Assembly: GCA_902762955.1 (NCBI GenBank)
Contig: CACWQH010000014.1
Span: forward strand, 1 to 62,400
Reading direction: 5' to 3'
Length of the DNA stretch: 62,400 bases
Source: an uncultured Lachnospiraceae bacterium
Lineage (GTDB): Bacteria > Bacillota > Clostridia > Lachnospirales > Lachnospiraceae
Shown: piece after piece, positions 6,465-62,400 of the stretch
Layout of the letters: each line of letters begins with the position of its first letter
Position numbering within the stretch: position 1 is the stretch's first letter
Notes under the pieces: model-generated
Seen by the model: the letters and a program-made list of their open reading frames with translations, nothing else
The model's database searches: none
Told to the model about the DNA's origin: nothing
Position numbers and translations under genes: made by a program

Positions 6465-6558
6465 AAGAGGTTATTTGGCAGGCGTCGCGGCTCCTGCATC
6501 TCTTTTAACCCATAGGGTGCGTGGTTGCAACGGAATTTACCACCTCAAATAACCTCTT
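6465..6558 (-). ncRNA. structured RNA element downstream of a BECR-type gene
   Basis: A 13-bp perfect outer stem (AAGAGGTTATTTG with CAAATAACCTCTT) encloses, in minus-strand order, the hairpin GTGGT-13 nt-ACCAC, a small CCC-TAT-GGG hairpin, and the hairpin GCAGG-10 nt-CCTGC. The loops of the first and last hairpins contain CGTTGC and GCGACG, which can pair over 6 bp with one G-U wobble, valid only in minus-strand RNA. This predicts a closed multi-branch RNA with a loop-loop contact. It starts 27 nt after the stop of the gene at 6586-7023. No known RNA family recognised. Confidence 0.5.
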
Positions 6559-6585: not shown

Positions 6586-7023
6586 TTATTCCCTTTTGTA
6601 AATAACCTCTTTATTTCTCAAATAGTTATCTAATCGCTTCTCCGTTATTTTCCAACTTGTAATCAAAGAATTTTTATATCCCTCTTTATCTTCAGCTGTA
6701 CATATTTTTAATGTTAATAAAATACTTTCCTTCTCACAAGTAATTCTCTTAATTACAAGACCTGTATTAGGACGTTTATCCCTAATTATGTAATCCGGTT
6801 CTGATAAAACATCTTTTACATAATGTATAGCATCATCAAATGCCTCAGGATGTTTTTCTCGTATATGCGATAGCTGTTCATCTGTTATAATTACTTCGTC
6901 ACATACATGTTTATCGGAAATACATCCATATATAGACCAATCCAATGTTCCAAGGCTATGAATTACAGCACTTTCATCATTATCAATACTTCTATCTCCT
7001 GCTTGTCCTTTATTATTAATCAT
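6586..7023 (-). CDS. BECR-fold nuclease-like protein (PBECR type)
   Basis: 145 residues from an ATG preceded at 8 nt by AAGGAG; an in-frame ATG at 7041 lacks such a site. After a polar N-terminus comes a compact domain with the pattern of phage barnase/EndoU/colicin-RelE-like nucleases: VIITDEQLSHIREKHPEAF (a histidine-arginine-histidine helix), PDYIIRD, a strand pair LVIKRITCEKESILLTLKI, and a final strand NSLITSWKI. These domains usually occur as toxin modules on phage head proteins or as small stand-alone toxins cleaving RNA. Family assignment rests on this pattern only. It is followed by a structured RNA, which could be its partner. Confidence 0.55.
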   Translation of the reverse strand: MINNKGQAGDRSIDNDESAVIHSLGTLDWSIYGCISDKHVCDEVIITDEQLSHIREKHPEAFDDAIHYVKDVLSEPDYIIRDKRPNTGLVIKRITCEKESILLTLKICTAEDKEGYKNSLITSWKITEKRLDNYLRNKEVIYKRE

Positions 7024-7674
7024 AATAAATTCTCCTTTCAACCTATAAACTTTTTTAGGAAGTGATTATGCTCTATATCGCATAACCAGTCTTATACATT
7101 TTATACTATCACACGTTTACTTATTTTTCAACTTGTTTTTCTATAAACATACATTTTGTAAATAAAGATATCCCAAGCCAGTCTCCCACTCAACCACAAC
7201 TCAAGGTATAAACACGGTATAAAACACCATTCCATCCACTGACGAACCGCCTATTCCCGTTATCTTATTTTTCCTTCCGAATTCTACACTTTTTCCAAAA
7301 TGGGGCAAAACAAGGCAAATCACTTCCCTCATTCGTAGTAAAATCATAGTAGAAATCGGGGTGTCTTACTACTCCCCAAAGGGGGGGCATTTGAAACCCT
7401 CAAAACTGCTCAATGTGGCTTCATTTTTTCCGAAATCCGTCAAAGGGGGTTCATCGTTAAAAGGTGCTGAATTATCTTCCGAGATATTTCACTAAATTCA
7501 CAAGCCCTTATATTTCCTTACTTTTTTCGGCACACCCGCCGTAGCAGGTGTACCATTTAGTGTACCATCACACGGCATTCAAAAACTTGCAAGCTTTATT
7601 ATATACCTCTTTTCTATTAAAAAAGAATCTTAGAAATATTCTAAGCCCAAAATAGATTAAGTATCTTCCACTTG
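7024..7674. other. gene-free stretch with recombination-like repeats
   Basis: About 650 bp without a credible gene. It contains copy 1 of a repeat shared with 9928-10014 and 10332-10382 (at 7172-7260), a run of seven G residues near 7381, and a pair of 9-bp direct repeats GGTGTACCA / GTGTACCA at 7547-7555 and 7560-7567 resembling recombinase arm sites. Short in-frame fragments on the minus strand near 7500-7550 (GTPATAGVPKKVRKYKGL) could be the tail of a vanished gene. It looks like debris of mobile-element integrations. Confidence 0.45.
7172..7260. repeat. dispersed repeat, copy 1 (about 50-88 bp; copies at 9928 and 10332)
   Basis: Core CCCAAGCCAGTCTCCCACT followed by CAACCACAACTCAAGGTATA and AACACGGTATA. 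The same block recurs at 9928-10014 (extending to ACCGCCTATTC) and, shorter, at 10332-10382. All three are in the same orientation. The core ends with two GGTATA motifs 5 nt apart, as in recombinase arm sites. The copies flank the surface-protein and DUF4238 genes. Confidence 0.75.
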
Positions 7675-25150: not shown

Positions 25151-26491
25151 TCAAAACTCAACCAACGGTGTTATTTCTTTATTTTCAAGCTTTCCATATA
25201 GCGAAAGCAATGCACTCGCCGAACCGGCTGCACCTATATACAGGCCAAGGTGTGAATCCACATTCCACGGAATTACTCTCGTCCACGCATTGTACCAACG
25301 TATTCCTTTATCATCCTTAAATGCATCTCCGATTAATTTTCTTGCAGTCTCCTTGGCAAGTCTTTCATATTTTTCATCACCTATAGTATCTATTCCGTCT
25401 ATAAAATGAAGCAGTACGCCGGACGAACCACAGCATATGCAGTCATTCCAATAGCCTGCTGAGCGGATATTCGGAACACCCGCTTTTACAAGTGCATTTG
25501 TAAGCTTTCTATAGAATTCAATATAATCCTTATCACCTGTTGCCTGATAAAGCTCCTTTGCCACAATTGCCGTTCCGACCGGTCCGTGACATAGACTAAG
25601 ATAAAATATATCGTAGGCTTTTCCCGTATCCTTCCAATATATATAAGGAACAATCGCCGAATCTCCATCCTTTACCGCAATATTTTCAAGGAACGAAAAA
25701 CCCTTTTTTGCGTAAGACAGATAATTTTCATCCTTAGATGCTTCATAATATTTGGTAAGTAAATAAACCACTCCGGCAGTTCCATGTGCAAAGTTGGAAA
25801 TAAGTCCGCCGGCAGGAAGATTTTTGAAATAATCATTTATCTCAAGGAAGTTCCAATTAACCGTTCCGTCATCATTTACTGTCGCAAGACTTATAATATA
25901 ATCAAGCGTTTCCTTAGCATATGAAAGATACTTTTCATCGCCCGTTATATCTGACAGATAAATCCAATATAAAATGGTGCTTCCATCTCCCATATAGTCA
26001 ATCAGGTTATACCAATGAACCTCACTGTCCTTTTTAATGGCGTATTTGTAAACGGCATCTCCAGCCTTTCTTGCATATTCCAGATATCTTTCATCGCCTG
26101 TTTTTTGATACAGATGATAAGCAAATAAACCCTCACCGGATAAACCCGTATGAATCCCCGGTTTCTTACCGAGCTCTTCGTCGTATGTATCAAGCAGATA
26201 TTCTCCTGCCTGAATAGCTTCCTCCAGATACTCCTTTTTACCGGTTGCCTCATAGAGCTGGATATAAAAGAAACCGATACCCGCAGCTCCGGAATAAATA
26301 GTCCTGTCACTTAACTTACCTGCCAGTTCATCTCCCTCTGAAGAACCCTCTCCGCTGCTTATCTTCCAACTTTTTCCTTTATCCTTCTTAACGGAAAATC
26401 TGTCAATCCACTTCGCAACCGCTTCTGCTGTCTCAAGATAAGTGTTATTGTCAATCTCATCAAACGGACTAATCAGCTTAATATCTCCCAT
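25151..26491 (-). CDS. LanC-like protein (alpha/alpha-toroid, zinc-site variant)
   Basis: 446 residues from the ATG at 26491 (GGAGAG 8 nt upstream; a GTG three codons earlier is too close). Repeated helical hairpins with Gly-rich turns (SGAAGIGFFYIQLYEATGKK; LSGEGLFAYHLY; AHGTAGVVYLL) show the barrel of LanC cyclases. Putative zinc ligands are in SLCHGPVGTA and DCICCGSSGVLL; the second motif lacks the CHG order of true LanC, so cyclase activity is uncertain. No lantibiotic precursor, dehydratase or exporter is near, which argues for a stand-alone LanC-like role, possibly in thiol or glutathione-type adducts. Confidence 0.8.
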   Translation of the reverse strand: MGDIKLISPFDEIDNNTYLETAEAVAKWIDRFSVKKDKGKSWKISSGEGSSEGDELAGKLSDRTIYSGAAGIGFFYIQLYEATGKKEYLEEAIQAGEYLLDTYDEELGKKPGIHTGLSGEGLFAYHLYQKTGDERYLEYARKAGDAVYKYAIKKDSEVHWYNLIDYMGDGSTILYWIYLSDITGDEKYLSYAKETLDYIISLATVNDDGTVNWNFLEINDYFKNLPAGGLISNFAHGTAGVVYLLTKYYEASKDENYLSYAKKGFSFLENIAVKDGDSAIVPYIYWKDTGKAYDIFYLSLCHGPVGTAIVAKELYQATGDKDYIEFYRKLTNALVKAGVPNIRSAGYWNDCICCGSSGVLLHFIDGIDTIGDEKYERLAKETARKLIGDAFKDDKGIRWYNAWTRVIPWNVDSHLGLYIGAAGSASALLSLYGKLENKEITPLVEF

Positions 26492-26567
26492 TACTATCAC
26501 TCTCCTTAATTCATAGTGTTTTTCTTTGGATTAATATAGCACGAGCTTTTGATTATGTATAATTCCT

Positions 26568-26606
26568 AAAAAATACTATGGGTTATAGCTAAAAGCTATA
26601 ACCCAT
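26568..26606 (-). terminator. rho-independent terminator after the DUF2442-HTH gene
   Basis: On the minus strand ATGGGTTATAGCT and AGCTATAACCCAT (13 bp) close a 3-nt loop and are followed by AGTATTTTTT. It lies about 30 nt after the stop of the HTH gene. Confidence 0.85.
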
Positions 26607-26636
26607 GGTGTGGATATCTTGTTTTTTATAATCTAT

Positions 26637-27104
26637 TTAATCATCTTCATAAGAAAAATTAATATTCAACCTACACCCCAATGCCAGAGCAATTCTGTTG
26701 AGTGTACTTACAGATACATTTGCCATACCTCTTTCTATCTTGGATAAATCTGACTGATCAATGCCTGTAGCTTCAGATAACTGTTTCTGTGTCAATCCCC
26801 TCTTGGTTCTTGCATGCATTACCTCCTCACCAACCATAAATGCTATCGCAAGCTTAACAAGGCGTACAGTACGCCCTTCTTCATATATGGTCTCAACATC
26901 AATGTCCAAATCATCATTCCATCTTATACCATACGAGCCCATTAGTTGACCGGATAAAAACAAGTCTCTGTTTTCAAGGGCATGCAGTTGCGGGTACTTA
27001 GTAAAGAGCACAGCCATATCATATTGTTTTACCTTTCCATCTTGAAAAGTAAGTTCAAGCTCGGTTCCATCTTTGAATTCTAATTCTAACGCTTTATGAA
27101 ACAT
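26637..27104 (-). CDS. DUF2442 domain fused to an XRE-type HTH (antitoxin-like)
   Basis: 155 residues. Residues 1-82 are a DUF2442 domain (MFHKALELEFKDGTELELTF; FLSGQLMGSYGIRWNDDLDI) and residues 93-150 a Cro/C1 HTH (KRGLTQKQLSEATGIDQSDL, then SKIERGMANVSVSTLNRI). The start is 1 nt after the stop of the DUF4160 gene and has no separate ribosome-binding site, so translation is coupled. The arrangement small basic protein, then HTH protein, under a promoter with an internal palindrome, is that of a toxin-antitoxin pair with autoregulation. Confidence 0.85.
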   Translation of the reverse strand: MFHKALELEFKDGTELELTFQDGKVKQYDMAVLFTKYPQLHALENRDLFLSGQLMGSYGIRWNDDLDIDVETIYEEGRTVRLVKLAIAFMVGEEVMHARTKRGLTQKQLSEATGIDQSDLSKIERGMANVSVSTLNRIALALGCRLNINFSYEDD

Positions 27105-33319: not shown

Positions 33320-33397
33320 AAGAACAGCTATATCTGATTACGTTTCGGACGTATCCTGAAGGTAACCACATTTATCAGGGATCAGTTGGCTGTTCTT
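33320..33397 (-). ncRNA. structured RNA element abutting a second BECR-type gene
   Basis: A 9-bp outer stem AAGAACAGC/GCTGTTCTT encloses, on the minus strand, an inner stem CTGAT/ATCAG from which two hairpins branch: CCTGA-15 nt-TCAGG and TACG-TCCGAAA-CGTA. This is a compact three-way junction of 78 nt. Its outer arm begins at the stop codon of the gene at 33397-33891. The sequence differs from the element at 6465-6558, but position and size are alike. No T tract follows, so it is not a plain terminator. Confidence 0.45.
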
Positions 33398-33891
33398 TAT
33401 TTTTCCGCTTTTTTTATATATGCTGAAACAATATAATTCTTCTTACGCTTTGAGGAATTTACAGTTTCAATAATATAATATGTACCATCAATTCTTTTAC
33501 TCATCTTTATCATCGGTGATGCTTCTCCATTTTCATCAAGATAACCCGTTGTTGTTATTCCCTCATACACAATATCATCATAATTTGATATGACATATCC
33601 CATTCTTGCTATATCTTCAATGTTTTTCATAGATGTATCTTGCTTTCCTTCTTTTCCATGTCTGTTAATTATATGTTTAATAGCATTTATATCTAAAACA
33701 ACTCTGCTCCCCTCTACATCTTTACCTGTCAATTCCTTAATTCTTTTAGCTGCTTTATCAGATAAAAATGCAACTGTTATAAAGTTTATTCTATCATTTC
33801 CATTTATAACATCCTCTATGAAGTCTTTAACATCATTATCTATTGAATTACTATACTCTTCCATAATCACTAATTGTTCTGATGTATGCAT
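33397..33891 (-). CDS. BECR-fold nuclease-like protein (PBECR type), second copy
   Basis: 164 residues. The C-terminal half has the pattern of phage-associated barnase/EndoU/RelE-like nucleases: RVVLDINAIKHIINRHGKEG (His-x3-Arg-His helix), a helix with DIARMGYVISNYDDIVYEG, and strands MIKMSKRIDGTYYIIETV and KNYIVSAYI. The N-terminal part (residues 1-60) is an acidic helical region. Distantly similar in layout to the gene at 6586. AAGGAGG is 7 nt before the ATG. Its stop is in direct contact with a structured RNA. Confidence 0.55.
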   Translation of the reverse strand: MHTSEQLVIMEEYSNSIDNDVKDFIEDVINGNDRINFITVAFLSDKAAKRIKELTGKDVEGSRVVLDINAIKHIINRHGKEGKQDTSMKNIEDIARMGYVISNYDDIVYEGITTTGYLDENGEASPMIKMSKRIDGTYYIIETVNSSKRKKNYIVSAYIKKAEK

Positions 33892-56519: not shown

Positions 56520-58013
56520 CTACGCACTGAGTGTAATCGGTGCGTATCTTTCAGAACAGATTACGTGCTCCATTGCTTCTGTTGGTGTCATTCCGACAGT
56601 TTGCATCAATTGCTTGAAGGTTGCTGCGGACTGACCTGATACAAGCTGTACACCTTGTCTGTTTGCATCTGCATGGAAGACATCATTTCTGCTGTTCACA
56701 TTCCAGAATACTACATTTGGAATTTCATATCCGTAGTATCTGTACTCTGCGCGAACCTGGTCATAAAATGTCCATGTTTCATCACTGCATCTGTCAATCT
56801 CCATATCGGAAATTACAATTATGGATCTTGGCATATCTGCTGCAGGAGTGTGGTTCTTAACAGCTATGGCAAGTACCTTTTCAAAAGCAACATGAAGATT
56901 TGTATTCATGCCCCATTCAGCCTTTCTTACAAAGCCTATCTTTTGCTCAAGAGTTTCACCGCGAAGTGAAACAATTTGAGGATTTGCACTAAATGTCATG
57001 AAAAGATTATGATAATCTCCTTGGTTATGCTCTGCAAAATATATAGCAAGTCCGATAGAAGATGCCATAGGTCTGCCATTTGAGCACATCATCGAGCCCG
57101 ACACATCCGCCATAACAAGCGCATTTACTCCATCTTCCACATAGTCTGGGAGCTGTCTCCACTGAGCCTCGAGTGCCTGTATTTCCTGCTCGGTAAGACT
57201 TCCCTTTCTGCCGTAATAATATTGTTCAAGGAACTTTTCTGCAATATCATAAGGATAAAGAGTTGCTGCATGTATGGTTTCCTCACCGTTAACCGCCTTA
57301 TTTATGTACTCTGCATAACGCTCTCTGTCATGTCTTGCAAATGCATTTCTGTATATCATCATGGCTCTGGATGGAACGGTATTATATACAATTTCCCCCC
57401 ATTCATTTGTTGACATCTTTGCCTCAACTATACCAATCTGCTTACGAAGCGCACGAACTATACGCTTGAACTCATATACAGAATAACCAAGTCTTTTTGC
57501 AGTCAATATACCAAGTCTTCTTGTGTTTTCTGAGCTTGCATCGGCAGTCTTAATCCACTTTGCAAGCAAGGATACAGATTCACCGTTTTCAAGAGCTATG
57601 CGGTCAGCCTCAAACTGTTCCTTCATAACTCTCCACATATCATCTTCAAGAGAGGTACCTATCAATGTGTAAAGGTCATCATATCTGCCATATAATCCTA
57701 TGAGTGAAAGGTTGTTTCTCAATGCTTCAGGATGATATGCTGCCATATACTTGATTATACTTCTAAATGCTCTACGCTCACCTAAACCTTCTCTTATATC
57801 TCTTGCATAAAATGCAATCTTTGTTGCCATCAAAGGATTTTCACGGTAAGCCTCTGCGAAGAGTCTGTTTATTCTTGCATCGTCTGCCTCTCTTAACGCA
57901 CCTATAGTGCCAAAGAGGTCAAGACATGCTGTGCCTGTTGTTGAAAGTGCAGCTGCACCATTTTCAGTTTTTGTCCAATTTGCCTTCTTTCTTAAAATTT
58001 CTGAAAATCTCAT
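56520..58013 (-). CDS. Ro60-like TROVE/VWA protein (Rsr family; DUF2828-related)
   Basis: 497 residues. N-terminal helical TROVE-like region (NWTKTENGAAALSTTGTACL; FYARDIREGLGERRAFRSI; IGLYGRYDDLYTLIG; LAKWIKTADASSENTRRLGI) and a C-terminal VWA domain with intact MIDAS (ALVMADVSGSMMCSNGRPMA; VISDMEIDRC). Ro60 proteins form a ring that binds misfolded RNA and Y RNA and in bacteria tether PNPase. Neighbours RtcB and a Y RNA support the assignment. AGAGGTG is 9 nt upstream of the ATG. The related DUF2828 family is the alternative label. Confidence 0.88.
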   Translation of the reverse strand: MRFSEILRKKANWTKTENGAAALSTTGTACLDLFGTIGALREADDARINRLFAEAYRENPLMATKIAFYARDIREGLGERRAFRSIIKYMAAYHPEALRNNLSLIGLYGRYDDLYTLIGTSLEDDMWRVMKEQFEADRIALENGESVSLLAKWIKTADASSENTRRLGILTAKRLGYSVYEFKRIVRALRKQIGIVEAKMSTNEWGEIVYNTVPSRAMMIYRNAFARHDRERYAEYINKAVNGEETIHAATLYPYDIAEKFLEQYYYGRKGSLTEQEIQALEAQWRQLPDYVEDGVNALVMADVSGSMMCSNGRPMASSIGLAIYFAEHNQGDYHNLFMTFSANPQIVSLRGETLEQKIGFVRKAEWGMNTNLHVAFEKVLAIAVKNHTPAADMPRSIIVISDMEIDRCSDETWTFYDQVRAEYRYYGYEIPNVVFWNVNSRNDVFHADANRQGVQLVSGQSAATFKQLMQTVGMTPTEAMEHVICSERYAPITLSA

Positions 58014-58103
58014 TTCTTACACCTCTTTCTTTAAAATAATTACAGGATGCTTTTTTATCATGATTAACAGTCATTTTGAATAGTTGCTGTTAGCATCCCA
58101 AGT

Positions 58104-58240
58104 CGTGAGGGCGGGATTCGAACCCGCAACACCATAATCCAACGATTATAGCTGTTAGAATCACTAATCATGATTCATTTTTCATGTGCTCTACCTCTTG
58201 AGCTACCTCACGTTATCGCCGTGAGCCATAAGCTCACAGC
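58104..58240 (-). ncRNA. yrlA: tRNA-mimicking Y RNA (YrlA-like)
   Basis: The minus strand folds as a tRNA with the anticodon arm replaced. Acceptor stem CGTGAGG/CCTCACG (7 bp; 58206-58212 and 58104-58110), U8-A9, D arm GCTC-AAGAGGTA-GAGC with the conserved GG, and T arm GCGGG-TTCGAAT-CCCGC. Between D and T arms are 60 nt instead of about 22; they form hairpins GAATCA/TGATTC and ATAATC-GTTG-GATTAT. There is no anticodon and no CCA. A leader hairpin GCTGTGAGC-TTATG-GCTCACGGC (58218-58240) with a U-G wobble precedes it. Location between rtcB and the Ro60 gene matches YrlA RNAs, which hold Ro60 and mimic tRNA. Confidence 0.85.
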
Positions 58241-58318
58241 TTTTCTTGTTTTCTCTTCCTTATGTGCCAATAATAAAACAATTACCAAAATTTATCATTT
58301 CAAAAAATCTGCGAAACG
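58241..58318 (-). promoter_or_regulatory. 78-bp shared control element, copy A (upstream of Y RNA and Ro60 gene)
   Basis: Identical to 59595-59672 except for one base (CCAATAAT versus CCCATAAT). On the minus strand it runs from CGTTTCGCAGATTTTTTG to ACATAAGGAAGAGAAAAC. It begins right after the rtcB gene and ends at the leader hairpin of the Y RNA. No consensus sigma-A promoter stands out; I infer an activator- or WYL-dependent promoter. Confidence 0.85.
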
Positions 58319-58335
58319 ATATAACTATGTGCTTA

Positions 58336-59568
58336 TCACCCCTTGAGCACTCCTATAGTCTTAAGCTTTCTTATAGGCGTGACAAGATCTGCCTGGTCCT
58401 CCATAACAACGTCTATATCCTTATATGCAAATCTGCACTCTTCGGCGACATCATTTTTCTTGGATTTACCAAGAACTACACCTTGGTTCTTTAAATCAAC
58501 CATGACCTCTTCGGTGGTAAATTCCGCTCTTGCCTTACTTCTTGAATAAGCGCGTCCCGCTCCGTGAGAGGATGAACAGAAGCTTTCCGGATTTCCCTTT
58601 CCTTCTACAACATAGCTGTATGAACCCATAGCTCCCGGAATTACCGAAAGGTCTCCCACTCTTGCACGGTTAGCACCCTTTCTGTGAACCCATACATTTT
58701 CACCAAAATGATTTTCTAAAGTTGCATAGTTATGGTGGCAGTTAACCTGCATTCCAAACTCTACATTTAAATTTGTATGCTTTTTTATAACATCACAAAC
58801 CACCTTGCATGCCATATCCATCATGGCCTTACGATTTTCAAATGCATAATCCATAGCAAGCTGCATCCAGTTTATGTACTGCTTCCCCTCTATCGAGTCA
58901 ACCGGAAGAAATGCAAGTCTCCATTCTTCTGGAACCTGACTGTAGTAACGGTTGTTAAGCTCTCTTGCTTTATTATGAAAATCATCGCAAATAGCTTTAC
59001 CGAGATGGCGGCTTCCGGAGTGAAGCATAATGCAAAGATATCCATCCTCATCCACTTGAAGCTCTACAAAATGATTGCCACCGCCCAATGTTCCAACCTG
59101 ATAATATCCATCCTCTATCAAAGGAAGAAGCTCCGCATTTGCTTCATACTTATCAAATTCCTCCTTTGCACGGTCAAGAACCTCACTTTTTTGAGGAAGC
59201 TTGTGACGAGCTGTATTGACAGGTATATCTCTCATAAATCCATTGATTATAGCCTGAATAATTGTTCCGTTTCCGGTTTGGATATCCTTTATATCATTAA
59301 CCTTAATATTGGTATCTATAAAGTTCATGCCACAGCCGATATCCACGCCGACAGCATTTGGTATAACCACACCCTTAGTTGCAATCACACCGCCGATTGG
59401 CATACCCTTTCCCGTATGTGTATCCGGCATAAGACATACCCACTTATGTATAAATGGAAGATTTGCAAGATGCTCGGCCTGTTCAAGACTGGTATCCTCT
59501 ATGGCATCCTTATCTCCAAGCCATATTTTTATTGGAAATCTTGTATTATCGTTATAATGTACATACAT
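58336..59568 (-). CDS. rtcB: RNA-splicing ligase RtcB
   Basis: 410 residues from the ATG at 59568 (AAAGGA 10 nt upstream; a GTG at 59577 is too close). Mn-binding Cys in GVDIGCGMNFIDT, histidines in GGGNHFVEL and CHHNYATLENHF, and the nucleotidyl histidine in SSHGAGRAYSRSKA. RtcB joins 3'-phosphate (or 2',3'-cyclic phosphate) to 5'-OH RNA ends with GTP, reversing cuts made by toxins such as RelE- or colicin-like nucleases. This is the lineage of about 400 residues without archease dependence visible here. Confidence 0.96.
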   Translation of the reverse strand: MYVHYNDNTRFPIKIWLGDKDAIEDTSLEQAEHLANLPFIHKWVCLMPDTHTGKGMPIGGVIATKGVVIPNAVGVDIGCGMNFIDTNIKVNDIKDIQTGNGTIIQAIINGFMRDIPVNTARHKLPQKSEVLDRAKEEFDKYEANAELLPLIEDGYYQVGTLGGGNHFVELQVDEDGYLCIMLHSGSRHLGKAICDDFHNKARELNNRYYSQVPEEWRLAFLPVDSIEGKQYINWMQLAMDYAFENRKAMMDMACKVVCDVIKKHTNLNVEFGMQVNCHHNYATLENHFGENVWVHRKGANRARVGDLSVIPGAMGSYSYVVEGKGNPESFCSSSHGAGRAYSRSKARAEFTTEEVMVDLKNQGVVLGKSKKNDVAEECRFAYKDIDVVMEDQADLVTPIRKLKTIGVLKG

Positions 59569-59594
59569 ATCTTCCACATCCTTTCAATCAAATT

Positions 59595-59672
59595 TTTTCT
59601 TGTTTTCTCTTCCTTATGTGCCCATAATAAAACAATTACCAAAATTTATCATTTCAAAAAATCTGCGAAACG
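59595..59672 (-). promoter_or_regulatory. 78-bp shared control element, copy B (upstream of rtcB)
   Basis: Second copy of the 78-bp element, ending 27 bp before the rtcB ATG and 20 bp from the WYL promoter on the other strand. Its near-identity to copy A, despite lying in non-coding DNA, implies recent duplication or strong constraint. Confidence 0.85.
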
Positions 59673-59692
59673 TTTTTTATACCATAGGTAAG

Positions 59693-59741
59693 TTGACTTT
59701 TCAAATGTGCATTTGTAATATATAATTACACAAACAGGAGG
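59693..59741 (+). promoter_or_regulatory. promoter and operator of the WYL regulator operon
   Basis: TTGACT (59693-59698), a 17-bp spacer and TAATAT (59716-59721). The spacer is filled by the palindrome CAAATGTGCATTTG (59702-59715). AGGAGG is at 59736-59741, 8 nt before the ATG. A regulator bound there would block RNA polymerase, fitting autorepression by the WYL protein. Confidence 0.65.
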
Positions 59742-59749
59742 AAAAAATC

Positions 59750-61195
59750 ATGGCAGAGTTTCAGGAGCTAATTAAAAATTTCAGTAAGTGCCGCGACTAT
59801 GTACGTGATTTTTTTGTGTACGGTTTTAAGAGCCGTCAGGATTTTACCTCCGATAAAAAGAGTGCCCGAACCTATGATGATGAGCGAAGACGTATCACAA
59901 GCTGGCTGGGTGACTATGTGGTCGAGGATTTAACAGATGAACATCGTGCACTCGGTAAGGTCAAAAATATATCTCTTCAGATGGACAGCAATCTGCTCGA
60001 TACCAACCCGCTCTTTGCGGTATGGAAGACAAAAAGCTTCACGGATAATGATATACTTTTGCATTTTTATATATTGGATGCACTGCGTGATGAGGCACTT
60101 TCCGCAAATGAGCTTGCCGACCTTTTATCAAACGACTACAAGCTTGCAGTCGATACCCAGCTTGTAAGAAGAAAATGTAATGAATATGTAGACGAAGGCT
60201 TGCTATCTGCCAAAAAGGACGGAAAAACCTTACTATATAGATTAAATCCTACCTGGGATGAATTGTGTAAGGATGACACGGCAGAACCCTTATCCGATGC
60301 CATAAAGCTTATGCAGCTTGACAGTCCGTTTGGTTTTGTCGGTGACACCATCTTAAATAATATACATACTGAAAATCGTATCTTTCGCGTAAAGCATGGC
60401 TTCCCGACATTTACATTGGAGGAAGAAATTGCCTACTCACTCCTTAAAGCAAAAAAAGAGCAGGCTTGTGTAAAGATAGATATCGTAAGCAACCGAAATG
60501 AAGGAAAGGCTGTTACTCATTACGGTTTCCCTTTAAAAATATTTGTGAGCAGCCGAACCGGAAGGCGCTACATATGTATGTATCTTATAAAAAACGGCAG
60601 ATCAAAGAAAAAACAGCACAGTAATGAAGCTCAAACTACTTCAAATCAAAAATCAAATACCGACATACCAATGAAGACAGGATCAACCGAAGATATCGCG
60701 CCACTTAAACTAAAATTTCACTGTGAACGTTTGGATCAGATAAAATCCGTCAAGCAAGTTACTATCCATGACACAGATGAAAACCAATGGGCACAAATCG
60801 AATCCGCTTCGGAAGCTTTTTCTGATATGCTTGAAACGCTTAACCGCAATATACCTTATATCTGGGGAGTTTCCTTTGAAGGCGTAAAAACAAAGGTTGT
60901 TCTCACCCTCCACATTGACGAACAATGGGAACAGTTTATTCTGGTACGACTAAAGCGCGAAGGAAAGGGCGGAGAAGTGACCAAGATTTCCGATAACACC
61001 TTCAGATATGAAAAAACCGTATTTGATGCAAATGAAATGTTCCCATGGTTTAGAACCTTTATCGGCAGAATAGTTGATATCAGATTTTATACCGTGAGCA
61101 ATAAACAGAAAGAAGACGCCGAGAACCGCCTGCTTCGTAAACATTTTTTTAATGATATAAATTCACTTTACGATATGTATGAGATAGAGGAGTAA
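59750..61195 (+). CDS. WYL-domain regulator, RNA-repair operon, protein 1
   Basis: 481 residues, longer than usual WYL proteins. N-terminal 80 residues are charged and helical (FQELIKNFSKCRDYVRDFFV), then a winged-helix segment (ILDALRDEALSANELADLLS; QLVRRKCNEYVDEGLLSAKK). A WYL-like core at about 215-290 (ACVKIDIVSNRNEGKAVTHY; VSSRTGRRYICMYLIKN) precedes a C-terminal WCX-type region (VVLTLHIDEQWEQFILVRLK). A low-complexity Gln/Ser/Asn insert is near 285-310. Divergent from rtcB and coupled to the second WYL gene 2 nt away. It probably senses an RNA or nucleotide damage signal. Confidence 0.82.
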   Translation: MAEFQELIKNFSKCRDYVRDFFVYGFKSRQDFTSDKKSARTYDDERRRITSWLGDYVVEDLTDEHRALGKVKNISLQMDSNLLDTNPLFAVWKTKSFTDNDILLHFYILDALRDEALSANELADLLSNDYKLAVDTQLVRRKCNEYVDEGLLSAKKDGKTLLYRLNPTWDELCKDDTAEPLSDAIKLMQLDSPFGFVGDTILNNIHTENRIFRVKHGFPTFTLEEEIAYSLLKAKKEQACVKIDIVSNRNEGKAVTHYGFPLKIFVSSRTGRRYICMYLIKNGRSKKKQHSNEAQTTSNQKSNTDIPMKTGSTEDIAPLKLKFHCERLDQIKSVKQVTIHDTDENQWAQIESASEAFSDMLETLNRNIPYIWGVSFEGVKTKVVLTLHIDEQWEQFILVRLKREGKGGEVTKISDNTFRYEKTVFDANEMFPWFRTFIGRIVDIRFYTVSNKQKEDAENRLLRKHFFNDINSLYDMYEIEE

Positions 61196-61197
61196 AT

Positions 61198-62211
61198 ATG
61201 CAGCTATTTTCAGAAATATACAACTGCTACTACAATATAATAAACGATTTATTGGGAGGTAGTGAAGCCTTCTCCAAGGCGGAGCTTGAAAAAGCTGTAT
61301 CCAAAGAGGGCTTTGGTGAAACCTCTCTTTATCTTGCACCGAAAATTGCAAGCGGCGAATGGTCTTTCTTTGAAAAAGATAAAGATTTATATGTATCTGT
61401 TTTAGACGGTGAACCTCCGATTGTTTTATCATTACTTCAAAAAAGATGGCTCAAAGCGATTTTATCCGATGCAAGGATAAGGCTTTTTTTCACGGATGAA
61501 CAGCTGGAAAGTCTTAAAGATACTCTTTCAAATATAGAACCCTTGTATAAACAGGATGACTTTTATATATACGACAGCTTTGCCTATGGCGATGACTATA
61601 CAGACAGCACCTACCGCACCAACTTTCACACTATCCTAAATGCCATAAAGGAGAGGCAGCTGCTTGACATAACCTTTCAGTCACATGTAAATAACAGGGT
61701 ACACTACCATTTCCTGCCCTGCAAGCTGGAATATTCGGTAAGAAATAACTGCTTCCGCCTCCTTGCCATAGAAAGCAGAGGCAAAAGCCATGATAAATTT
61801 TATACCATTAATTTGTCAAGAATAAGCGAGCTAAAAGAAACCGGGAAATTTGTTTCAGATACTTCAGGTTTTGATAAGGAATCCGACAAATTTGATAATA
61901 CTGCTTCCCATTATGATATTGATACATACATCACAAGAGGCTACCACAAAGAACCGGTAACACTAATTATAAAAAATGAACGTAATGCATTGGAGCGTGC
62001 GATGCTCCAATTCGCCAATTACAAAAAGAACACCACCCGCATAGATGATACCACTTACAAATGTGAGATATTCTATAACAAAAGCAATGAGACCGAGCTT
62101 TTGATAGAAGTACTCTCCTTCGGACCTGCTATACGTGTGGTAGGAAACGAGCATTTTTTAAGACTGTTAAAAAACCGCCTGATGCTGCAAAAAACCTTAA
62201 ATAATAAATAG
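61198..62211 (+). CDS. WYL-domain regulator, RNA-repair operon, protein 2
   Basis: 337 residues with N-terminal helices (MQLFSEIYNCYYNIINDLLG) and a WYL domain at about 150-215 (QLLDITFQSHVNNRVHYHFL; LEYSVRNNCFRLLAIESRGK), followed by the C-terminal segment ERAMLQFANYKKNTTRIDDT. No clear HTH at the N-terminus, so it may act with protein 1 as a heteromer. GAGGAG overlaps the end of protein 1. Confidence 0.82.
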   Translation: MQLFSEIYNCYYNIINDLLGGSEAFSKAELEKAVSKEGFGETSLYLAPKIASGEWSFFEKDKDLYVSVLDGEPPIVLSLLQKRWLKAILSDARIRLFFTDEQLESLKDTLSNIEPLYKQDDFYIYDSFAYGDDYTDSTYRTNFHTILNAIKERQLLDITFQSHVNNRVHYHFLPCKLEYSVRNNCFRLLAIESRGKSHDKFYTINLSRISELKETGKFVSDTSGFDKESDKFDNTASHYDIDTYITRGYHKEPVTLIIKNERNALERAMLQFANYKKNTTRIDDTTYKCEIFYNKSNETELLIEVLSFGPAIRVVGNEHFLRLLKNRLMLQKTLNNK

Positions 62212-62212
62212 C

Positions 62213-62400
62213 GATATGGGCATGAGCTCTGATACATATCTTTATAATACTATATGTTGAGTGACTTCAAGTTGGGATAAGAAATAAGCAGGTGTATATA
62301 AGTGAATATTATCACGCTTGGGAGCACCCCTTCTCACGCTTGAGAGCACCCTGAAATCATGACGGATTCTCATGCTTGGGAGCACCTTGTGACCACTAGA
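62213..62400. repeat. repeat region at the window's right edge, likely another giant-hairpin arm
   Basis: A diverged dispersed-repeat copy (62213-62239) is followed by ACTTCAAGTTGGGATAAG and AATAAGCAGGTGTATATAAG, nearly the left arm of the 51.4-kb hairpin. Then three direct repeats TCACGCTTGGGAGCACC (62312-62328, 62334-62350, 62370-62386). The right arm is cut off by the window end. Confidence 0.7.

What the first reader, a model, noticed from the sequence alone, without database searches (positions are those of the whole stretch)
56520..62211. Compact RNA repair locus: Ro60, tRNA-like Y RNA, RtcB and paired WYL regulators
Seen: a TROVE/VWA gene, a tRNA-like non-coding RNA and rtcB in one direction, two WYL genes divergent. 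Known: Ro60 with Y RNA handles damaged RNA, RtcB reseals cut RNA, and in Proteobacteria the operon is controlled by RtcR. Inference: here RtcR is replaced by a WYL pair, and the window also has two RelE/colicin-like nuclease genes whose cuts RtcB could repair. The regulatory wiring in this lineage seems little described.
Basis: partly seen in the sequence, partly recalled or inferred. Interest (0 to 1): 0.92.

Follow-up and report, generated by a model that had tools for sequence, protein, structure and literature searches.

The report
Ro60-like RNA repair locus, tRNA-mimic RNAs
A gut bacterium carries an RNA repair locus in which a protein shaped like human Ro60, an RNA that imitates a tRNA but has its anticodon arm swapped for another hairpin, and the RNA-sealing enzyme RtcB appear to share one dedicated switch, and the same RNA signature recurs beside this protein family in many bacteria and phages, so it looks like an unrecognised family of Y-like RNAs.

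Summary
The locus is real. rtcB, a tRNA-like RNA and a Ro60-like gene lie in one direction; two WYL genes diverge. One correction: the protein matches Pfam DUF2828/DUF7788, not TROVE, but its predicted fold finds Ro60 first (top eight PDB hits).

The RNA has intact acceptor, D and T arms, but its anticodon arm is replaced by a covarying hairpin followed by an ACAGCWA motif. Upstream of 83 of 96 related genes lie modules of one kind, a stem of 7-9 bp followed by ACAGCA (reverse strand 2 of 96; resamplings about 2 of 96). They also flank 64 of 77 viral homologues. Some sit in tRNA bodies in normal order, a few in circularly permuted (YrlA-like) bodies, most in neither.

A 22-nt operator precedes both rtcB and the RNA. 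It occurs exactly twice in the 2.65-Mb genome, is followed after 18 nt by TANNNT at 18 of 18 sites of one set and 4 of 6 further sites, and in close relatives tracks the WYL pair.

RtcR and RtcA were not found. Binding, inducer and function are inferred. Repair of cuts made by the window's two nuclease genes is unsupported.

The parts
56520..58013 (-). DUF2828/DUF7788 Ro60-like vWA protein (497 aa), with D303, S305, S307, T371, D403 where a MIDAS is expected
   Evidence: Pfam; the five positions invariant in 43 aligned sequences (the name MIDAS is recalled); AlphaFold model pLDDT 89, pTM 0.88; Foldseek PDB ranks 1-8 are Ro60/TROVE
58043..58099 (-). Stem module of type P: GGGATGCT, TAACAGCAA, 3' strand AGCATCCT, then G
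   Evidence: same rule in 83 of 96 upstream regions
58103..58212 (-). tRNA-like RNA: acceptor, D and T arms intact, anticodon arm replaced
   Evidence: RF00005 49.9 bits; R1 model 106.8 bits (a training sequence), next best beyond the top ten listed 51 bits
58149..58176 (-). Insert in place of the anticodon arm: hairpin GAATCAT / GTGATTC followed by TAACAGCTA
   Evidence: helix 3 of alignment A3: 98.2% of cells paired, 4 of 6 pairs with changes on both sides
58218..58240 (-). Leader hairpin before the tRNA-like RNA
   Evidence: fold
58270..58275 (-). -10-like TATTAT of the RNA/Ro60-like promoter
   Evidence: 18 nt after the operator; TANNNT at this spacing in 18 of 18 sites
58294..58315 (-). 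Operator copy before the RNA: TTCGCAGATTTTTTGAAATGAT
58234..58318 (-). 85-nt promoter repeat, copy before the RNA (95% identical to the copy before rtcB)
58336..59568 (-). RtcB RNA ligase, 410 aa from ATG 59568 (open frame from GTG 59577); the only RtcB found in the genome
   Evidence: PF01139 E 2.5e-114 over 1-426/426
59624..59629 (-). -10-like TATTAT of the rtcB promoter
59648..59669 (-). Operator copy before rtcB, in the gap between rtcB and WYL1
59588..59672 (-). 85-nt promoter repeat, copy before rtcB
59750..61195 (+). WYL1: winged-helix/WYL regulator
   Evidence: family members hit WYL (6 of 14) and PaaX-like (3 of 14) at E up to 0.1; AlphaFold model poor, pLDDT 66
61198..62211 (+). WYL2: WYL/WCX regulator
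   Evidence: family members hit WYL (8 of 15) and WCX (10 of 15) at E up to 0.1; PADLOC WYL 2.1e-9

Best explanation
The locus encodes an inducible Ro60-type ribonucleoprotein plus an RNA ligase. A divergently encoded WYL pair activates two twin promoters: the operator TTCGCAGMTTTTTTGAAATGAT covers the -35 region at a fixed 18 nt from TANNNT. One promoter drives rtcB, the other the tRNA-like RNA and the Ro60-like (DUF2828) protein. The protein's helical ring and vWA domain bind the RNA at a recognition module, a 7-9 bp stem flanked by YACAGCAA. The rest of the RNA is a tRNA body that lacks an anticodon. It presents a tRNA shape to enzymes that handle damaged tRNA (RtcB, nucleases), as bacterial Y RNAs are thought to do, and so tethers, gates or decoys them. 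RtcB then reseals RNAs with 2',3'-cyclic phosphate or 3'-phosphate and 5'-OH ends. Shown by sequence: parts, predicted fold, covariation, recurrence of modules beside this protein family, the operator as a private mark. Inferred: RNA-protein binding, WYL as activator, the inducer, tethering or decoy, RtcB's substrates.
For: Fold: the top eight PDB hits are Ro60/TROVE (best E 5.3e-7, TM 0.45-0.59). RNA: 20 tRNA-like RNAs, 98.8% of cells paired, covariation 0.676 against 0.183 in shuffles, none of 500 reach it. Association: strict modules in 83 of 96 upstream regions (non-redundant 78 of 91), reverse strand 2 of 96, resamplings mean 2.1 of 96, the stretch 800-1500 nt upstream 9 of 90; viral loci 64 of 77, reverse strand 2 of 77; 11 of 12 GenBank phage loci, reverse strand 0 of 12. 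Regulon: the operator occurs twice in 2.65 Mb, reversed control 0; 18 of 18 sites have TANNNT at 18 nt. In the close clade (VWA at least 50% identical) 9 of 9 loci with a WYL gene have it; the 2 operator-bearing loci without one (L047, L048) have the WYL gene on another contig beside an operator. Operators precede rtcB in four other genomes (L226, L227, L237, L239). RtcR and RtcA not found.
Against: No binding or expression data. The full set is a minority arrangement: 7 of 52 well-flanked loci have RtcB plus both WYL genes, 37 of 52 have neither. In more distant WYL-bearing loci the operator is mostly diverged (2-6 mismatches, typically 4-5). Of six further operator sites, two lack TANNNT at 18 nt (L240 has TATAAT at 17, L242 has CATCTT). 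One genome (G131) has the tRNA-like RNA, WYL1 and rtcB but no DUF7788 gene. The genome search with model R1 is weak evidence of specificity: 7 of its 10 best hits were in the model; of the 3 new ones two are on a contig with the gene and one is the G131 orphan; only 7 of the 22 DUF7788 genomes have such a hit. Only 6 modules match the permuted topology and 214 of 262 distinct type P modules have no T arm, so a tRNA body is not essential. The same-genus genome G180 lacks the gene. Rmsd to Ro60 is large (6.8-10 A), identity 12-17%.
Confidence: 0.64

Rival explanations
1. Decoy: the tRNA-like RNAs are sponges for anticodon nucleases or other tRNA-targeting toxins (host or phage), stabilised by the Ro60-like protein. 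RtcB repairs what the decoy fails to spare. Phages carry the pair to protect their tRNA arrays.
For: The anticodon arm is exactly the part replaced; different tRNA bodies (TAGCTCA type and Leu-like GTGGCGGAA type) carry the same insert in one array; 676 phage records hold the protein; tRNA genes and/or RtcB lie nearby in the Listeria, Felixounavirus and Campylobacter phages looked at. Hughes et al. 2020 (PMC7790460, passages) raise the inhibitor idea for YrlA.
Against: Most type P modules have no T arm (214 of 262 distinct); an anticodon-loop cut site is absent.
Confidence: 0.3
2. Cis-acting leader: the RNA is a structured 5' leader that controls the Ro60-like mRNA (T-box or riboswitch kind) rather than a free RNA.
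For: The modules lie between promoter and start codon in most loci.
Against: In 8 of 77 viral loci modules lie only downstream within 1200 nt, as in phage LeBron (L130); an orphan copy stands without the gene (L222); complete tRNA bodies in both circular orders; in L046-L049 the element TANNNT ends 7 nt before the tRNA body.
Confidence: 0.12
3. Degenerate tRNA genes or an insertion-bearing tRNA pseudogene next to an unrelated operon.
For: Rfam calls it a tRNA; no CCA follows in 20 of 20, though many ordinary tRNAs of these loci lack it too.
Against: Compensatory changes in the acceptor stem, T stem and insert hairpin; recurrence of the modules beside one protein family.
Confidence: 0.03

Closest known systems
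Rsr (bacterial Ro60, TROVE-vWA) with Y RNA / YrlA and rtcBA under RtcR, as in Salmonella (Hughes et al. 2020, PMC7790460, passages read)
   Same: Ro60-like fold, tRNA-mimic RNA, RtcB in one locus, divergent regulator
   Different: Protein is DUF2828/DUF7788, not PF05731; the window's tRNA body is in normal order with the hairpin in place of the anticodon arm, whereas the Rfam YrlA model has T arm before D arm; no RtcA or RtcR found; WYL pair and dedicated operator instead
Phage 'Ro-like RNA binding protein' (e.g. Mycobacterium phage LeBron gp53; PHROG 850)
   Same: Same protein family (37% identity over 99%; PHROG 850 E 8e-132); stem-ACAGCAA modules beside it (L130)
   Different: Phage copies lie among phage genes; my searches (listed under Tried and rejected) found no printed description of these RNA modules
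PafBC, the paired WYL activator of mycobacteria (recalled; profile of WYL2 hits PafBC 6sj9 only at E 0.044)
   Same: Two adjacent WYL proteins, promoter element near the -35 region (the latter recalled for PafBC)
   Different: Different operator and target genes; inducer here unknown
Putative phage Y RNAs in Listeria phage CKA15 (PMC12282133, passages and section 8 read)
   Same: Authors suggest Rsr-like CKA15_055 plus abundant non-coding RNAs as Y RNAs; CKA15_055 sits at the place of the DUF2828 gene of its near relatives
   Different: Our modules lie at about 25,290-25,550 of that genome; the one region whose coordinates I saw is 26,236-26,727, so their data as read do not show that the modules are made

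Membership tests
Ro60/Rsr (TROVE) proteins | Pfam TROVE domain PF05731 | tested here: not met
   No PF05731 in the own genome; the protein hits DUF2828/DUF7788
Ro60/Rsr (TROVE) proteins | Helical-repeat ring closed by a vWA domain (fold) | tested here: met
   Predicted model only: Foldseek ranks 1-8 all Ro60/TROVE, TM 0.45-0.59
Ro60/Rsr (TROVE) proteins | Binds Y RNA and misfolded RNA | not testable with these tools
   Needs binding assay
Y RNA / YrlA (RF02553) | Match at the Rfam gathering score (69 bits) | tested here: not met
   Window 18.9 bits, E 0.93; best relative L017 45.7 bits, E 3e-7
Y RNA / YrlA (RF02553) | Stem module plus tRNA-like domain, encoded beside the Ro protein | tested here: met
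   Met in the window. In the family: modules in 83 of 96 loci, but a tRNA body only in type N (36 strict modules, not all checked for the body) and 6 permuted ones
tRNA genes | Anticodon arm with 7-nt loop | tested here: not met
   44 nt stand unaligned where the tRNA model has 7, with a covarying hairpin and ACAGCWA
rtc operon under RtcR | RtcR (PF06956) and RtcA (PF01137) present | tested here: not met
   None in the own genome, about 89% complete
RtcB RNA ligase | Full-length PF01139 | tested here: met
   383 bits, positions 1-426 of 426
WYL regulators | WYL domain | tested here: met
   8 of 15 and 6 of 14 family members hit at E up to 0.1; PADLOC WYL 2.1e-9 for the window's WYL2; the window's own copies weak in Pfam
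WYL regulators | DNA binding at the operator, ligand response | not testable with these tools
   Only co-occurrence tested

The most novel reading that the evidence does not exclude
The DUF2828/DUF7788 family is a second, phage- and bacteria-wide branch of Ro60-type RNP proteins with its own RNA class, which Rfam does not recognise beyond its tRNA part. A stem-YACAGCAA recognition module is grafted onto interchangeable bodies: tRNAs of different kinds in normal order, circularly permuted tRNAs, lone T-arm hairpins, perhaps a tmRNA mimic. In some Lachnospiraceae it forms the core of a WYL-driven RNA repair regulon with rtcB and, in one genome, a second tmRNA.
Probability: 0.5. Interest if true: 0.92.

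Novelty: new variant of a known kind. Interest (0 to 1): 0.84.

Why it matters
Bacterial Y RNAs are known mainly beside TROVE-type Rsr (recalled). In samples from this lineage DUF7788 (22 of 200 genomes of the family) is commoner than TROVE (2 of 146 in the order; 6 of 299 in the phylum; the samples differ), and 676 phage records carry a homologue. If these modules are its ligands, a large set of 'hypothetical' phage and bacterial genes gets a defined RNA partner that can be tested at once. Normal-order and permuted tRNA bodies with one shared hairpin motif would show how a tRNA can be turned into a Y-type RNA. The private operator gives a handle on what signal turns on RNA repair in bacteria that lack RtcR, an open question.

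Tried and rejected
TROVE label: rejected by Pfam, kept as fold likeness. YrlA membership: below gathering score. Missing CCA as a mark of mimicry: 20 of 20 tRNA-like RNAs lack it, but 66 of 125 ARAGORN tRNAs of these loci do too, so dropped. Listeria phage CKA15 transcriptome as proof of expression: the one region with coordinates does not coincide, so only 'compatible'. PBECR nucleases as partners: no positional or operator link. Loss of rtcB in L044 (95% identical gene, one operator copy) by recombination between the repeats: likely, since L045 (76%) has rtcB between two operators, but not proven. WYL1 structure: poor model, not searched. TROVE loci as control: 10 short loci from 8 genomes, 30 kb, gave 8 strict hits on the two strands (4 and 4, one counted twice), stems chance-like by eye; this is above the resampling rate but far below the 159 in 67 kb, and too little to say the module is foreign to TROVE. 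The resamplings are first-order Markov, not exact dinucleotide shuffles.

Rows dropped: one search used 96 of 102 regions (six shorter than 600 nt); one search used 77 of 80 (L164, L166, L172 too short upstream); one search left out L055 (same contig as L029) and phage loci L137-L139, and did not remove duplicates among type N; alignment A3 holds 20 tRNA-like RNAs that I chose by eye for their TAGCTCA-type bodies, leaving out Leu-like bodies. Acceptor, D and T pairing was the selection rule; the insert hairpin was not a rule, but I saw it when choosing.

Literature: Burroughs and Aravind 2016, Sim et al. 2020 and Chen et al. 2014 are not held, so priority in them is unchecked. Searches whose listings showed no description of these modules: (61 and 120 listed only 15 of 136 and of 333 papers).
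Full report
What is there. On the minus strand of 56520-59568 lie, in order of transcription, rtcB, a tRNA-like RNA, a short stem module and a vWA gene. On the plus strand two adjacent genes run the other way from 59750. RtcB is full-length and the only one found in the genome. The RNA at 58103-58212 matches Rfam tRNA at 49.9 bits with 44 nt left unaligned where the model has 7; ARAGORN does not accept it. The 216 nt around it fold at z = -6.6. An 85-nt direct repeat, 95% identical, precedes both rtcB and the RNA.

The protein. Pfam gives DUF7788 and DUF2828, not TROVE, and the genome has no TROVE hit. In 43 aligned sequences D303, S305, S307, T371 and D403, the positions expected for a MIDAS (recalled), are invariant. 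The AlphaFold model (pLDDT 89, pTM 0.88) finds Ro60 or TROVE structures as the first eight hits in the PDB, best E 5.3e-7, TM 0.45-0.59, rmsd 6.8-10 A, identity 12-17%. A sequence profile finds no Ro60. So it is Ro60-like by predicted fold and a separate sequence family. It is already called 'Ro-like RNA binding protein' in mycobacteriophage records and 'RNA-binding protein' in PHROG 850.

The RNA family. I took up to 1500 nt upstream of 102 homologues, the window included. Many hold one or several RNAs with acceptor stem, D arm and T arm, in which the anticodon arm is replaced by a hairpin, often of the form NNNTCATG-loop-GTGANNN, followed by YACAGCAA or a close variant. Twenty of them, chosen for one body type, give 98.8% paired cells, 104 cells with changes on both sides (27.8 in shuffles) and a covariation score of 0.676 (shuffles 0.183); sliding the partner by 1-3 columns drops the score to 0.08-0.13. 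The number of pairs with a change on both sides is 14 against 10.9, reached by 4 of 500 shuffles. The insert hairpin, which was not a selection rule, is 98.2% paired with changes on both sides at 4 of 6 pairs. Different bodies occur, TAGCTCA types and Leu-like GTGGCGGAA types, within one array.

A more general module emerged: a stem whose 5' strand ends just before ACAGCA, with the 3' strand 20-130 nt downstream (type P) or as a local hairpin (type N). A strict rule (perfect stem of at least 7 pairs, at most one G-U) finds it in 83 of 96 regions, 159 modules, against 2 of 96 on the reverse strand, a mean of 2.1 of 96 in ten resamplings, and 9 of 90 in the stretch 800-1500 nt upstream. Of 199 ACAGCA words in these regions 159 have such a stem; in the resamplings about 2 of 18.6. 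On a non-redundant set it is 78 of 91; thirteen regions have none by this rule. In IMG/VR loci 64 of 77 have one within 1200 nt of the gene (56 upstream, 19 downstream), reverse strand upstream 2 of 77, resamplings 8 of 231. Of 12 phage loci from GenBank, 11 have at least one anywhere in the 5-8.5 kb fetched, reverse strand none of 12: for example three upstream of the gene in Listeria phages and two downstream of it in LeBron. In one search, 36 modules are type N (not de-duplicated) and 262 distinct ones type P: 6 with a circularly permuted tRNA body (T arm, acceptor hairpin, D arm: the order of the YrlA model), 42 with a T arm only, 214 without. The two strand orders correspond: opening the TCATG/GTGA loop of the normal-order RNA gives the ends of the permuted one (my reading). 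Rfam 15 recognises only tRNA parts of these RNAs above threshold in the window and the 21 other short loci scanned (the other hits there are unrelated RNAs); one relative reaches YrlA at 45.7 bits, below the gathering score of 69.

Specificity by covariance model. Model R1 of the normal-order RNA, run over 200 genomes of the bacterial family with 18 candidates scored per genome, gives ten hits of 61-107 bits; the next listed is 51 bits, ordinary-tRNA level. Nine are on contigs with the DUF7788 gene, eight within about 1 kb. But seven of the ten were in the model. Of the three new ones, two are on the G118 contig with the gene and one, in G131, is an orphan in a genome without it. Only 7 of the 22 DUF7788 genomes have such a hit. 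The case for association therefore rests on the module counts above.

The switch. The 22-mer TTCGCAGNTTTTTTGAAATGAT occurs twice in the 2.65-Mb genome allowing three mismatches, once before rtcB and once before the RNA; the reversed pattern has none. Across fetched loci 18 sites were found, each followed after exactly 18 nt by TANNNT (not all independent: the window and L044, and L047 and L048, are near copies). Six further sites with at most 2 mismatches came from a genome-wide search of 14 genomes (the reversed control had one hit in all): four have TANNNT at 18 nt, one has TATAAT at 17, one has CATCTT. In L046-L049 the tRNA body begins 7 nt after that element. In the clade at least 50% identical, the 9 loci with an adjacent WYL gene all carry the operator with at most 2 mismatches. 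Two loci without an adjacent WYL gene carry it (L047, L048), and their genomes hold the WYL gene elsewhere, beside an operator. Genomes of L058, L060 and L065, where no WYL1 was found, have none or only a 3-mismatch hit without TANNNT. Two genomes with a WYL1 relative at 42-44% (L057, L076) were not searched genome-wide for the operator. In distant clades the operator is diverged in most WYL-bearing loci. Operators precede rtcB (L226, L227, L237, L239), RNA plus the Ro60-like gene (nine sites), a DUF6847 gene (L240), RNA remnants next to WYL1 (L232, L242) and, in G344, a second tmRNA preceded by a 130-nt stretch that copies the bases around its 5' end (L241). RtcR and RtcA are not found in the window's genome, which is about 89% complete.

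How common the full set is. Of 52 loci with at least 5 kb upstream and 3 kb downstream, 7 have RtcB and both WYL genes, 4 the WYL pair only, 4 RtcB only, 37 neither. The genome of the same genus in the sample lacks the protein. So the compact repair locus is one arrangement of a wider protein-RNA pair.

How it probably works. Inference: the WYL pair senses a product of RNA damage and recruits polymerase at the twin promoters; the Ro60-like ring holds the RNA by the stem-ACAGCAA module; the tRNA body addresses the particle to enzymes that act on tRNA; RtcB seals the ends. Published work on the Salmonella operon ties induction to 5' tRNA halves with cyclic phosphate ends (PMC7790460, passages); whether WYL reads the same signal is unknown. 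The decoy rival is close behind, since the anticodon arm is the very part removed.

What is known. Ro60-Y RNA-RtcB operons are described (PMC7790460, passages). Ro-like proteins of phages are named (PMC13148394, passages), and Y RNAs have been suggested for Listeria phage CKA15 (PMC12282133, passages and section 8). In that phage the modules lie at about 25,290-25,550, between CKA15_055 and CKA15_056, not in the reported peak at 26,236-26,727; the coordinates of the other two peaks were not in what I read. No paper in the held library joins DUF2828 with RtcB, and DUF2828 itself is found in four papers, all on plants by their titles. Key papers are not held, so priority remains open.

Verdict. 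Observation sound with one family name corrected; interpretation half right; the unexpected part is the RNA family and its private operator.

Noticed in passing
L241 (G344:C105 about 77741-78298, minus strand): A second tmRNA (tag ADEAIAA) in a genome that also has an ordinary one (C13); it stands under the 22-nt operator and is preceded by a 130-nt stretch that repeats the 26 bases around its 5' end and then diverges with ACAGCAA.
   Followed up: partly
L240 (G341:C168), 614-1069 minus: A DUF6847 protein gene stands under an exact operator copy (TATAAT at 17 nt): a candidate further member of the regulon.
   Followed up: partly
L222 8091-8206 (G131:C13): Orphan tRNA-like RNA of the same family, with an operator-like stretch before it, in a genome without a DUF7788 hit; the same genome has WYL1-operator-rtcB on another contig (L237).
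   Followed up: partly
window 6586-7041(-) and 33397-33891(-): Two PBECR2/PBECR3 (phage-Barnase-EndoU-ColicinE5/D-RelE like) nuclease-domain proteins, far from the repair locus.
   Followed up: partly
window 6470-6553(-): skipping-rope RNA (RF02924, 67.1 bits) just downstream of the first PBECR gene.
   Followed up: no
window 62309-62387: Three copies of a 21-nt repeat (86-100% alike) just after WYL2.
   Followed up: no
L138 4369-4478 (Synechococcus phage B23): Deposited as 'tRNA-Undet'; by eye a normal-order tRNA body with a hairpin and TAACTGCAA in place of the anticodon arm, near the DUF2828 gene.
   Followed up: partly
L129 1-7553 (Listeria phage AG20): tRNA genes, three stem modules, DUF2828 gene, HTH, phosphohydrolase and a 'tRNA splicing ligase' in one run: a phage version of the repair locus.
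   Followed up: partly
L224, Listeria phage CKA15 26236-26727: The most abundant non-coding transcript region reported for this phage carries no module by my rule; its RNA class is unexplained.
   Followed up: no
L054, L112: Large tRNA gene runs (18 and 13 ARAGORN calls) in bacterial contigs with the DUF2828 gene, reminiscent of phage tRNA arrays.
   Followed up: no
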